DNA of 64,000 nucleotides from Absidia repens (lineage: Eukaryota; Mucoromycota; Mucoromycetes; Mucorales; Cunninghamellaceae), in NCBI GenBank assembly GCA_002105175.1, contig MCGE01000042.1, positions 62,001-126,000 on the forward strand, read 5' to 3'. This document shows, piece by piece, positions 24,961 to 28,514 of this stretch (its first letter is position 1; each line of letters starts with the position of its first letter). Position numbers and translations under genes: made by a program. Below the pieces are notes generated by a model. The model was given only the letters and a program-made list of their open reading frames with translations. It was not told where the DNA came from and searched no databases.

Positions 24961-25613
24961 ATGCGATTCTTAACTGTACTTTTTGGATTACTTGCTTTAC
25001 TTTTGGCTACTGTATATGCTGGTAAGAACACATTTGTGATTTTGGATTGTTTTTTAATGAATTTGTTTGTGGATTGGAACGGAAAGGTGGATTTTTCTAT
25101 ATGTGGGAGGGAGTGGTTTTGTGTGTAGTAACGGTGGTGAAAACAGGTGGCGAAAGGATGCTGAAATTGTGCAGGAAAAGAATGGACTTTGAATATCATA
25201 TGCATGTTTGTATATATGAATTGATGGTTGTGGCAATAAGCACAACAATACATACGCTTAGTTATGAGTGATATGCACTAACTGATCATCATTATTTTTT
25301 TGCCAATAAACTATGATCGACTCATTAGATTCTACTTACATTGTGGCATTAAAACAAGGTAGCGATGCAAAGCAAGTCCAAGAAGCAAAATCTGATATAC
25401 AAGCAGTGGGGGGAAAAGTCCTACATGAATTCAAGGTTGGTATGAAAGGATTTGTTGTCACATTACCTGATGATCAGTACAACACAATGACTACCAAAGA
25501 CTATGTGGACTTCGTGGAAGCTGATAAAGAAAGTAGGTTTGACGTTTGACCATAAATTTACAAGGCATATTGACATTCTTTTTCGATATTTTTTTTTTTT
25601 AGTGCATATCTGA
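24961..25613 (+). CDS. Secreted peptidase inhibitor I9 (subtilisin propeptide-like)
   Basis: Exon 1 (24961-25021) encodes a signal peptide, MRFLTVLFGLLALLLATVYA. Exon 2 (25329-25532) encodes STYIVALKQGSDAKQVQEAK, VGGKVLHEFKVGMKGFVVTL and DYVDFVEADKE, the inhibitor I9 fold found in subtilase propeptides and in the yeast vacuolar inhibitor Pbi2. A third mini-exon (25603-25613, MHI, stop) follows a 70-nt intron; the total is 91 aa. If that intron is retained the protein ends ESRFDV at 25549, 93 aa, also in frame. It has no protease domain, so it is a stand-alone inhibitor or chaperone. The signal peptide distinguishes it from cytosolic Pbi2. Confidence 0.85.
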
Positions 25614-26096: not shown

Positions 26097-28514
26097 ATGC
26101 AAAAGATGGAATCTCGCTCCGACACATCATCATCCTTCACGACAACCACACAGCAACAAGGTAATATTGTTCTTGGTGATGTGGCAACAACAAAAACGGA
26201 AATGTATGAAGAAAAAATTCAGCAAGATGATAGTGCAATGGATCCCTCTACATTAGGATTGTCTGACGATCATCATAATGCTTCGCCCGACCGACATGAA
26301 CTTGATCATCATGATGCCAAGTCTACTAAATCAAATCAGCAAATCGGAGTTGAACGAAAAAAGCCAACATTTAAATCTGGATTTTATGCCATTATGACAG
26401 GTTCATGGCTTAATGTGCTTTTGATTTTTATTCCCTTTGGCATTGTTTCTCACTTCTTTTGGGGTCCTACTGCAACCTTTGTATTAAATTTCATTGCAAT
26501 CATTCCTTTGGCAAAATTATTAGGTGATGTGACCGAGGATATTGCATTGCGGACAGGAGAGGTAAGATCGGTTTCTATAGTATACTCTCATCTCCTATTT
26601 TTTACTCACTCGCTTTATTATTTTTTATACTCCGCATATCAAATATTTCGTTTGCTTTTTTTTTTTTTCAAGGTGGTTGGTGGACTACTAAATGCAACAT
26701 TTGGAAATGCAGTTGAATTGATTGTATCTATTATTGCACTCAGTCAAAACTTGGTAGTGATTGTGCAAAGCTCCATGTTGGGCTCCATCTTGTCGAATTT
26801 ACTACTGGTATTGGGAATGTGCTTTTGGTTAGGCGGTTACCGATTCAAAGAACAAGTCTTCAACGTCACTGTTGCTCAAACTTCAGCAGGTCTCTTATTC
26901 ATAGCCACTGCTTCACTTTTGATGCCTGCGGCTTTCTATGGATCTACTTTATACACGGTATCATCAGCTGCTGAAGTGCATGATATTTTGGCTATCTCTC
27001 GGGCGACCTCAATCTTATTATTGGTAATTTATGCCTCATATCTCTTTTTCCAGGTAAATTTCGTGATTCCCTCCCTATCTCCTTCATGGCCTCCTTACCA
27101 CGATCATTTTGATCTTCTTTACCCATTCCCCTTTTTGTTACCCTTCCTTCTCCTTCTTTTTTTTTTTGGAATTCATGTACTAACACTCGCTCTTTTTGTA
27201 TTTTTGTTATATGTATAATGAATTGAACTTTGAATTGGAATATATCTTAGCTTAGAACACACAAACAACTGGTAAGGAGTTATTTAAAAAGAACATTCAT
27301 TAATCGTGCATGATCATCTAACTTTAATATTCCATATTATCTCTTTTTTAGTTCCTGGCACCACCTCCCGAAGCATTCCACTTCTCTCGTCGAACCACTA
27401 GATCACGAATAAACGATGCCGAAAATAGCAGCACCCTTACAGAAAATGAACAAGAAGAAGAAGAAGAAGAAGAACCTGAAGAACCTATTATGTCTGGATG
27501 GCTGGCTGGTATGATGTAAGTGATTTCTATGCGTATATAAATAAGCATGATGCTAATCATTTCCCGTTATGGTGTTTGTTAGGTTATTCTTTATCACTGT
27601 CTTTGTAGCCATCTGTGCTGAATTCCTTGTTTCTGCTATTGAAGCTGTGGTTGAACAATGGAATATCAGTGAAACTTTTGTTGGTCTGATTCTCTTGCCG
27701 ATCATTGGGGTAATTAACCGTCAAAATACAAATGATTTACTTGTAAAATTAACCTTCCCGACTCTTTTTATTTTATTTTATTTTATTTTTGTTATGAACG
27801 ATCGATCGGTCTTGATTATACTTTGACAATCTCAATAGAGTAAGTAACTTGTCATTTTTACTATTTGTTATTATTTTGACATACAGGTAAACTAATGCTT
27901 ATTTTGTTAAATTTCGATCTCCGGTGCCTCTTTCTCCTGAATAGAGTAAGTGATCATCCATGTTTTTGAATTTTCTTTGCTCTTACACTCTGCTCCTTAT
28001 TTTTTTTTATCCAATTATAATAGTGCTGCTGAACATGTCACTGCTGTTTCTGTGGCCTGGAAAAACAAGGTAAAAAATTGAAAACGTTGCAGTTGCTATT
28101 TATATTTGTATTTATTTGTATTTGTTTCCTTAGATGGATTTAGCGCTAGGTGTCGCAGTTGGCAGTAGTATGCAAATTGCTCTTCTTGTCACACCCATCA
28201 TGGTCATCATTGGTTGGGGTATTGGTGTCAACATGAGTTTATACTTCAATATGTATGAAACTGCTATCATGTTTATCGCTGTTGTCATGGTGAATTATTT
28301 GATCATGGTAAGTTCTTTTAATGACTCGATTTTATGAATTGCAACTTACTTAATTATATCATAGGATGGGCGAAGCAATTGGTTGGAAGGACTTATGTTA
28401 TGTAGCGTGTACTTGATTGTTGCCATCTCTTTCTTCTACTATCCTGATGCCGCTGCCAACGATTTGGATACAGGCGTCAACTTGGGAAACAATTTGTCTA
28501 TCACCCCTCATTAG
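26097..28514 (+). CDS. VCX1: Vacuolar Ca2+/H+ exchanger (CAX family)
   Basis: Exons: 26097-26561, 26673-27053, 27352-27515, 27583-27709, 27839 (A), 27945 (A), 28024-28069, 28134-28307, 28365-28514; 1509 nt, 502 aa. An acidic/His-rich N-terminus precedes about 11 membrane segments. The first alpha-repeat has [18 protein letters not shown] (about residue 160) and the second [18 protein letters not shown] with [14 protein letters not shown]. An acidic loop ([11 protein letters not shown]) lies between the halves, as in Vcx1/CAX proteins that load Ca2+ into the vacuole against H+. The conserved GNAAEH can be built only by joining two separate single-A exons, each flanked by ATAG and GTAAGT. With none or one of them the frame breaks just before this motif. 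Confidence 0.93.

What the first reader, a model, noticed from the sequence alone, without database searches (positions are those of the whole stretch)
27710..28069. Two consecutive single-nucleotide exons needed to restore the Ca2+/H+ exchanger motif GNAAEH
Exon 27583-27709 ends LLPIIG in phase 0, and exon 28024-28069 begins T GCT GCT GAA CAT. The invariant CAX motif GNAAEH requires AA between them. The 314 bp in between hold exactly two places where an AG is followed by one A and then GTAAGT (27839 and 27945, both within AATAGAGTAAGT). Joining GGG + A + A + TGCTGCT gives Gly-Asn-Ala-Ala-Glu-His and a full 1509-nt frame; using none gives a stop and using one gives a frameshift. The three introns would be 129, 105 and 78 nt. 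Single-nucleotide exons are known in a very few genes; two in a row would be exceptional. An AG/GTAAAC junction (about 27887) between them also hints at stepwise (recursive) splicing.
Basis: partly seen in the sequence, partly recalled or inferred. Interest (0 to 1): 0.92.

Follow-up and report, generated by a model that had tools for sequence, protein, structure and literature searches.

The report
Two consecutive one-nucleotide exons, one codon
In a fungal calcium transporter gene, one amino acid's three-letter codon appears to be assembled from three separate exons, two of which are a single letter long, and the same arrangement survives in a diverged second copy of the gene.

Summary
The window is Absidia repens contig C37; the gene is a vacuolar Ca2+/H+ exchanger. 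Exon 27583-27709 ends GGG and exon 28024-28069 begins T GCT GCT GAA CAT. Among enumerated GT-AG routes only A (27839) plus A (27945) restores GNAAEH.

A diverged paralogue on C2 (dS 0.55; these introns 62-65% identical) keeps both AATAG|A|GTAAGT junctions, 107 instead of 106 nt apart, and again only A+A works. Four distant CAX paralogues have one plain intron at AA|T of this codon, so AA must come from upstream. Deposited proteins of the orthologous clade are broken at this codon in 6 of 11 models (probably 5 of 10 genes), against 0 of 229 other listed homologues; several breaks look like misread A|GTAAGT junctions.

Corrections: the CDS is 1530 nt (a 21-nt exon, 27251-27271, was missed); in-frame alternatives GSNAAEH (5-nt exon) and GAAEH (stwintron-like) exist; the AG/GTAAAC 'recursive' site at 27887 is not conserved in C2.

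Single 1-nt exons are known. Two in a row, with introns in all three phases of one codon, I did not find in print.

The parts
26097..26561 (+). exon 1 (coding, from ATG) of the CAX gene
   Evidence: model; the C2 copy has a matching exon; the deposited P0004 starts further in, at residue 100 of this model
26673..27053 (+). exon 2, carries the first-repeat motif GNAVEL
   Evidence: the P0004 sequence agrees
   Evidence: present in deposited P0001, P0004, P0008, P0010 and in the C2 paralogue
27352..27515 (+). exon 4
27583..27709 (+). exon 5, ends ...LLPIIG (GGG) in phase 0
27710..27838 (+). intron 5, in phase 0 before the Asn codon (GGG|A), GTAATT...AATAG, 129 nt
   Evidence: C2 counterpart 82 nt, GTAAGA...AATAG
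27839..27839 (+). exon 6: single nucleotide A, first base of the Asn codon (Asn-387 in the numbering without exon 3's 7 residues is 387 in the 509-aa model)
   Evidence: conserved in C2 at contig position 1231097
27840..27944 (+). intron 6, in phase 1 (A|A), GTAAGT...AATAG, 105 nt
   Evidence: C2 counterpart 106 nt
27945..27945 (+). exon 7: single nucleotide A, second base of the Asn codon
   Evidence: conserved in C2 at contig position 1230990
27946..28023 (+). intron 7, in phase 2 (AA|T), GTAAGT...AATAG, 78 nt; position shared with four distant CAX paralogues, so probably ancestral
28024..28069 (+). exon 8, begins T (third base of the Asn codon) then AAEHVTAV
28134..28307 (+). exon 9
28365..28514 (+). 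exon 10 to the stop codon
27887..27892 (+).

Best explanation
The gene encodes a vacuolar Ca2+/H+ exchanger. Its second-repeat motif GNAAEH is assembled across three introns that separate every base of one codon: the Asn-387 codon AAT comes from A (27839), A (27945) and T (28024), each on a different exon. The two middle exons are one nucleotide long. Shown by sequence and comparison: this is the only enumerated GT-AG route to the motif, in both gene copies. Inferred: the spliceosome removes the 314-nt stretch in three intron-defined steps. A 1-nt exon is too small for both its splice sites to be occupied at once, so the flanking introns must be cut one after another; each completed step rebuilds a donor (GGG-A|GTAAGT, then GGGA-A|GTAAGT) or an acceptor. 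In effect the AG|A|GTAAGT junctions would work like recursive-splicing ratchet points that leave one base behind. Also inferred: the AA|T intron is old in CAX genes, and the introns at GGG|A and A|A were added in the ancestor of an Absidia/Cunninghamella-group clade.
For: Enumeration: only A+A gives exactly GNAAEH, in the window (27839+27945) and in C2 (up to three internal exons, GT or GC donors; up to four reactions, donors GTAA/AG/GA/AT/TA, introns of 40 nt or more, 12 or fewer retained nt). Paralogue: C2 keeps AATAGAGTAAGT twice, 107 nt apart (106 here), in blocks of 14 and 18 identical nt, while these introns are 62-65% identical over aligned sites, dS is 0.55 and dN 0.034. Selection downstream in the restored frame: dS 0.76, dN 0.018, with stops in both other frames. 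Ancestral position: four of four distant CAX paralogues read GGA AA|GTRAGT...AG|T GCY GC, a single intron at the same AA|T place. Deposited proteins: P0004 equals the model over 410 of 410 residues including Asn; P0001 equals the C2 model over 510 of 511, with Ser for that Asn, i.e. that model also holds exactly 2 extra nt. Of 240 listed homologues, 6 of 11 clade models are broken at this codon (two of the six, P0010 and P0123, are probably halves of one gene) and 229 of 229 others keep the Asn, 222 of them in GNAAEH. Five of the six breaks fit a misread junction: GSNAAEH = AGTAA, GSIAAEH = AGTAT, GSK-stop = AGTAAGTRA, and LEQSNAAEH in two species (back-translation is inference). Donors after the 1-nt exons are GTAAGT in 4 of 4 cases against 3 of 14 other donors of the two copies (Fisher p = 0.011), as expected if the exon can hardly help U1.
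Against: No RNA read, cDNA or mass spectrum was available to me. The conserved AGAGTAAGT word also permits the in-frame 5-nt exon AGTAA (GSNAAEH) and a stwintron-like route (GAAEH). Long shared words are not unique to this stretch: intron 2 of the same gene pair shares a 23-mer and intron 1 a 14-mer, and 6 of 500 shuffled pairs of this stretch shared a word of 14 or 15. Branch-point motifs were inconclusive: no [CT]T[AG]A[CT] within 70 nt of the 3' end for window intron 7 or C2 intron 5, but none either for ordinary window introns 1 and 8 and C2 intron 8. Evidence from other species rests on predicted proteins, not DNA; the clade models of other species that read GNAAEH (P0003, P0005, P0006, P0009) do not tell how their genes supply the AA.
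Confidence: 0.9

Rival explanations
1. One 5-nt exon AGTAA at either junction (27839-27843 or 27945-27949) is used, giving GSNAAEH, with the two junctions as mutually exclusive duplicates.
For: It is in frame and canonical in both copies. Deposited Halteromyces radiatus P0008 reads GSNAAEH.
Against: It inserts Ser between Gly and Asn; none of 229 listed non-clade homologues has such an insert. It needs donors GTAACT/GTGATC (C2: GTAGCA/GTGAAC), weak against the consensus, when GTAAGT lies 4 nt earlier. It does not explain why both junctions are kept. Deposited P0004 has Asn directly after Gly.
Confidence: 0.05
2. A [D1,2]-type stwintron: a first splice ends at a later AG, so that the last G of exon 5 forms a new donor (G+TGATC; G+TAAGT by reading the sequence); the second splice then removes that G. 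The mRNA encodes GAAEH, lacking the Asn.
For: In frame and open in both copies. The AG|TAAGT word is what a [D1,2] stwintron needs (definition: PMC12403724 abstract).
Against: It needs an acceptor GAG 2 nt behind a TAG, or an AAG inside the donor word (that GAG is the poorest acceptor is recalled). It deletes an Asn present in 229 of 229 listed non-clade homologues. Deposited P0004 and P0001 both have a residue there.
Confidence: 0.02
3. Assembly or sequencing error: two bases of exon 5 or exon 8 were lost.
For: Would explain a 2-nt deficit in one gene.
Against: The same deficit with the same two junctions occurs in a second gene at dS 0.55, and deposited models of other species break at the same codon.
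Confidence: 0.01
4. An addition to the best explanation, not an alternative: the stretch is a regulated switch. mRNAs that skip one or both 1-nt exons carry early stops and are degraded, so inclusion sets transporter level.
For: Skipping both gives a stop 2 residues after the Gly; skipping one gives a frameshift and stop in both copies.
Against: No data on isoform levels. The stop is a necessary consequence of any frame-breaking exon.
Confidence: 0.15

Closest known systems
Fusarium CYP621A single-nucleotide exon (Nelson & Syed 2026, PMC12940212; part 1 of 3 of the text read)
   Same: A fungal gene; the 1-nt exon is required to complete a conserved motif; found in manual annotation; AG|G|GT. 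RNA reads confirm it there.
   Different: One 1-nt exon, not two in a row. It supplies the central base of a Gly codon. Fusarium, an ascomycete.
Arabidopsis APC11 single-nucleotide exon (Guo & Liu 2015, PMC4674806; passages read) and plant VPS55 1-nt microexon (PMC8831610; passages read)
   Same: A 1-nt exon (A in APC11); conserved GTRAGT donor in VPS55; misannotation; intron definition combined with recursive splicing proposed for APC11.
   Different: Single 1-nt exons. Adjacent microexons in the passages I saw are a 5-nt and a 12-nt exon (rice; Zygnema, PMC11096116 passages).
Recursive splicing ratchet points (PMC8605326; start of abstract seen in a search listing)
   Same: Juxtaposed acceptor and donor; stepwise processing.
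   Different: A ratchet point leaves no base in the mRNA (recalled); here each junction leaves one A. The introns here are short, 78-129 nt.
Fungal stwintrons [D1,2] (PMC12403724; abstract and outline read)
   Same: Consecutive splicing reactions within one apparent long intron of a fungal gene.
   Different: In stwintrons an internal intron splits the donor of another; here three abutting introns are separated by single retained bases.
Vacuolar calcium ion transporter (PDB 4k1c; that it is yeast Vcx1 is recalled)
   Same: The encoded protein aligns over residues 98-501 of the 502-aa query, E 7.5e-109, including GNAAEH.
   Different: Concerns the protein only.

Membership tests
1-nt (single-nucleotide) exon | One base flanked by AG on its 5' side and GT on its 3' side | tested here: met
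   27839 and 27945, AG|A|GTAAGT; the same twice in C2
1-nt (single-nucleotide) exon | The base is needed to keep frame and a conserved motif | tested here: met
   Only A+A gives GNAAEH; omission gives frameshift or stop
1-nt (single-nucleotide) exon | Conserved in related genes | tested here: met
   Diverged paralogue C2; in other species only indirectly, from broken protein models
1-nt (single-nucleotide) exon | Present in mature mRNA (reads or RT-PCR) | not testable with these tools
   No transcript data held; the third protein listing gave no new member of the clade
Recursive splicing ratchet point (AG|GT, zero-nt exon) | Acceptor and donor juxtaposed with no base between them | tested here: not met
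   One A lies between them at 27839 and 27945; the only zero-nt AG|GT (27887) is not conserved in C2
Recursive splicing ratchet point (AG|GT, zero-nt exon) | Splicing intermediates or lariats for each step | not testable with these tools
   Needs RNA
Stwintron [D1,2] | Internal intron splits the external donor between its first and second base, with a product in line with homologues | tested here: not met
   A formal route exists in both copies, but its product lacks the Asn (GAAEH) that 229 of 229 listed non-clade homologues have
CAX/Vcx1 Ca2+/H+ exchanger | Na_Ca_ex domain PF01699 and both repeat motifs (GNAVEL, GNAAEH; motif roles recalled) | tested here: met
   PF01699 over its cut-off; both motifs in the model; PDB 4k1c match
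CAX/Vcx1 Ca2+/H+ exchanger | Ca2+/H+ exchange activity | not testable with these tools
   Inferred from homology

The most novel reading that the evidence does not exclude
A codon in which all three bases lie on different exons, with introns in phases 0, 1 and 2 of the same codon, is kept across the Absidia/Cunninghamella-group clade and is built by ordered stepwise splicing in which each ratchet-like junction deposits a single nucleotide.
Probability: 0.6. Interest if true: 0.88.

Novelty: new variant of a known kind. Interest (0 to 1): 0.8.

Why it matters
A single 1-nt exon already strains models of splice-site recognition. Two in a row would require three abutting introns to be removed in an order that never leaves a 1-nt exon under two complexes at once, which makes the order of events testable on one short natural substrate. 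The gene pair, with older paralogues that carry only the AA|T intron, also gives a before-and-after record of how extra introns entered a codon. For annotation, it suggests that several public models of a fungal clade are wrong at a core motif of a Ca2+ transporter.

Tried and rejected
Recursive site AG/GTAAAC at 27887: not conserved in C2, where ACAG is followed by TTTACTAAT; the shared part is ACTAAT, a possible branch site. An A. cylindrospora fragment (P0123, EAHSLLTT) back-translates to the C2-like form; that is inference.

A single 2-nt exon AA (AG|AA|GT): none in the stretch; an AC|AA|AT place near 27728 is non-canonical and was not pursued.

Introner origin: the 314-nt stretch gave no second match in the genome at E 0.01, not even C2 (that search skips simple repeats and very common words). 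Tandem duplication of the two junctions: similarity outside AATAGAGTAAGT is 10-16 of 34-35 positions, no clear sign.

Other 1-nt exons: the nine further AATAGAGTAAGT places were read by eye; I recognised none, but built no gene models there.

cDNA from environmental sequence: the third protein search gave no new clade member; of 112 further proteins, 111 keep the motif and P0285 is interrupted two residues past the Asn codon's Ala-Ala, after GNAAE. Branch-point scan: inconclusive. Paper search with four terms returned nothing. DNA of related fungi: not searched; the DNA collections offered hold prokaryotes, viruses, phages and plasmids, and metagenome scans were capped at 0.

Errors of mine: the first gene model had wrong borders and was dropped; the C2 exon start was one base off and was corrected; the row 'exon upstream' was misindexed and is not used.

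Full report
What it is. The window lies in a 47.4-Mb genome. Deposited proteins P0004 and P0001 are named Absidia repens and come from contigs of 351,038 and 1,684,868 bases, the lengths of this genome's contigs C37 (the window's) and C2. The gene at 26097-28514 (+) encodes a vacuolar Ca2+/H+ exchanger: PF01699 over cut-off, PDB 4k1c (vacuolar calcium ion transporter) at E 7.5e-109.

Observation. The stated bases and positions were confirmed. The deposited protein of this gene, P0004 (410 aa, start placed later), equals residues 100-509 of the model without a difference, including that exon and the Asn. I could not see how the depositors' model obtains that Asn.

Is A+A the only way? I enumerated paths with up to three internal exons, GT or GT/GC donors, introns of at least 35 nt and at most 80 retained nt and, separately, series of up to four splicing reactions in which later donors may form across earlier joins (donors GTAA, GTAG, GTGA, GTAT or GTTA, introns of at least 40 nt, at most 12 retained nt). 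Only A (27839) + A (27945) yields GNAAEH; in the window this may or may not pass through the zero-nt site at 27887. In C2 again only A+A does. The other in-frame open products are GSNAAEH, GSNNAAEH and GAAEH, the same three in both copies; one search lists more, mostly longer. Chance is a poor explanation: 0 of 2000 shuffles had one AG[N]GTAAGT, let alone two; with a bare GT as donor, 4 of 2000 had two AGAGT.

The paralogue. C2 carries a second copy: 474 of 506 aligned residues identical, dS 0.551, dN 0.034. The three introns at the Asn codon are 82, 106 and 83 nt there against 129, 105 and 78, and 62-65% identical over aligned sites; the gene's six other introns are 57-84% identical. The two longest identical blocks of the aligned stretch, CCTGAATAGAGTAAGTGA (18) and CAATAGAGTAAGTA (14), sit on the two 1-nt exons. 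The longest word shared by 500 pairs of shuffles was 15 (2 of 500; 14 in 4 of 500). In fairness, intron 2 of the same pair shares a 23-mer, so shared words alone would not carry the case. The frame that A+A restores is under strong selection downstream: dS 0.761, dN 0.018, with 4-6 stops in each wrong frame.

Older paralogues. Four more distant CAX genes of this genome (C22, C6, C12:875 kb, C45:1340 kb; 52-60% identical in the best-matching exon) end the upstream exon GGA AA and resume T GCT GC or T GCC GC: one ordinary intron at AA|T (read by eye). A closer paralogue (C12:2186 kb, P0012) has its intron at GG|T. So the phase-2 intron of this codon is probably ancestral, and the requirement for AA upstream of it is seen in the relatives and not only deduced from the motif. 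The phase-0 and phase-1 introns would be later gains.

Other species. I had no DNA of related fungi, so I used deposited proteins. In a tree of 25 chosen proteins the window gene, C2 and eight deposited proteins of Absidia, Chlamydoabsidia, Halteromyces, Hesseltinella, Gongronella and Cunninghamella form one side of a branch (100/99). Adding P0001 and P0004 (the two A. repens genes) and the A. cylindrospora fragment P0123 (94% identical, not in the tree), 11 deposited clade models are among the 240 proteins of the first two listings, each listing being the best 120 only. Six of these 11 are broken exactly at the Asn codon and five read GNAAEH. P0010 and P0123 lie on contigs of the same length and look like the two halves of one gene, so this is probably 5 broken genes of 10. 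All 229 others keep the Asn, 222 in GNAAEH and 7 in ANASEH, ANAAEH or SNAAEH (Fisher 1.9e-9, descriptive only, since related models are not independent). Five of the six breaks read as traces of an A|GTAAGT-type junction: GSNAAEH (H. radiatus: AGTAA before GT), GSIAAEH (H. vesiculosa: AGTAT before GT), GSK-stop (A. cylindrospora P0010: AGT AAG TRA), and LEQSNAAEH (A. glauca P0002, A. cylindrospora P0123..CAG AGT AA before GT). The sixth, P0001, is the C2 copy itself with Ser for Asn. These back-translations are inference, but they predict the DNA and are easy to check. A third listing of shorter proteins gave no further clade member.

Mechanism. Shown: the anatomy, its uniqueness among enumerated routes and its conservation in C2. 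Inferred: splicing by intron definition, one intron after another. For APC11, Guo and Liu argue that exon definition is very unlikely for a 1-nt exon and propose intron definition combined with recursive splicing (PMC4674806, passages). Here the donors after the 1-nt exons are GTAAGT in 4 of 4 cases against 3 of 14 other donors of the two copies (p = 0.011), which fits an exon that can offer U1 at most one base; GTRAGT is likewise kept at plant VPS55 (PMC8831610, passages). Which intron goes first is unknown, and branch points could not be assigned.

What is known. Single 1-nt exons: plant APC11 and VPS55 (VPS55 also in Zygnema), Fusarium CYP621A (part 1 of 3 of the paper) and a placozoan mitochondrial cox1 exon (title in a listing). 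The Fusarium paper calls itself the first for a fungal gene. Adjacent microexons are known: 5 and 12 nt in plants, and three microexons in human RPS24 (abstract start in a listing; sizes not seen). I found no report of two 1-nt exons in a row in searches; these cover open-licence PMC papers only, and for most of the listed papers I saw only the listing.

Verdict. Two consecutive 1-nt exons are by far the best reading (0.9), pending RNA. As a kind it is a new variant of the known 1-nt exon; the double arrangement and the fully split codon are the surprising part.

Noticed in passing
27251-27271 and flanking introns 27054-27250, 27272-27351: A 21-nt microexon whose downstream intron (80 nt) is 84% identical to the C2 copy over aligned sites (the gene's other introns: 57-71%), and whose upstream intron shares a 23-mer with C2; possible splicing control elements.
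   Followed up: partly
L026 (G000:C12:2185200-2188500), reverse strand near 1887-1963: The closer CAX paralogue (deposited P0012) has its intron at GG|T of the same motif, 3 nt upstream of the AA|T position of the four distant paralogues; intron positions move around this codon.
   Followed up: partly
window 25313-25549 and L022 reverse complement 1-110: A short inhibitor-I9-like reading frame (family name recalled, not searched) lies upstream of the gene and, by eye, a similar stretch lies upstream of the C2 copy, suggesting a segmental duplication; the Rhizopus model P0018 has a similar-looking peptide fused to its CAX.
   Followed up: no
G000:C2 copy, deposited protein P0001 residue 389: The deposited protein carries Ser where the motif needs Asn; it differs from the A+A model at that residue only, so the public sequence is probably wrong at the motif.
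   Followed up: yes
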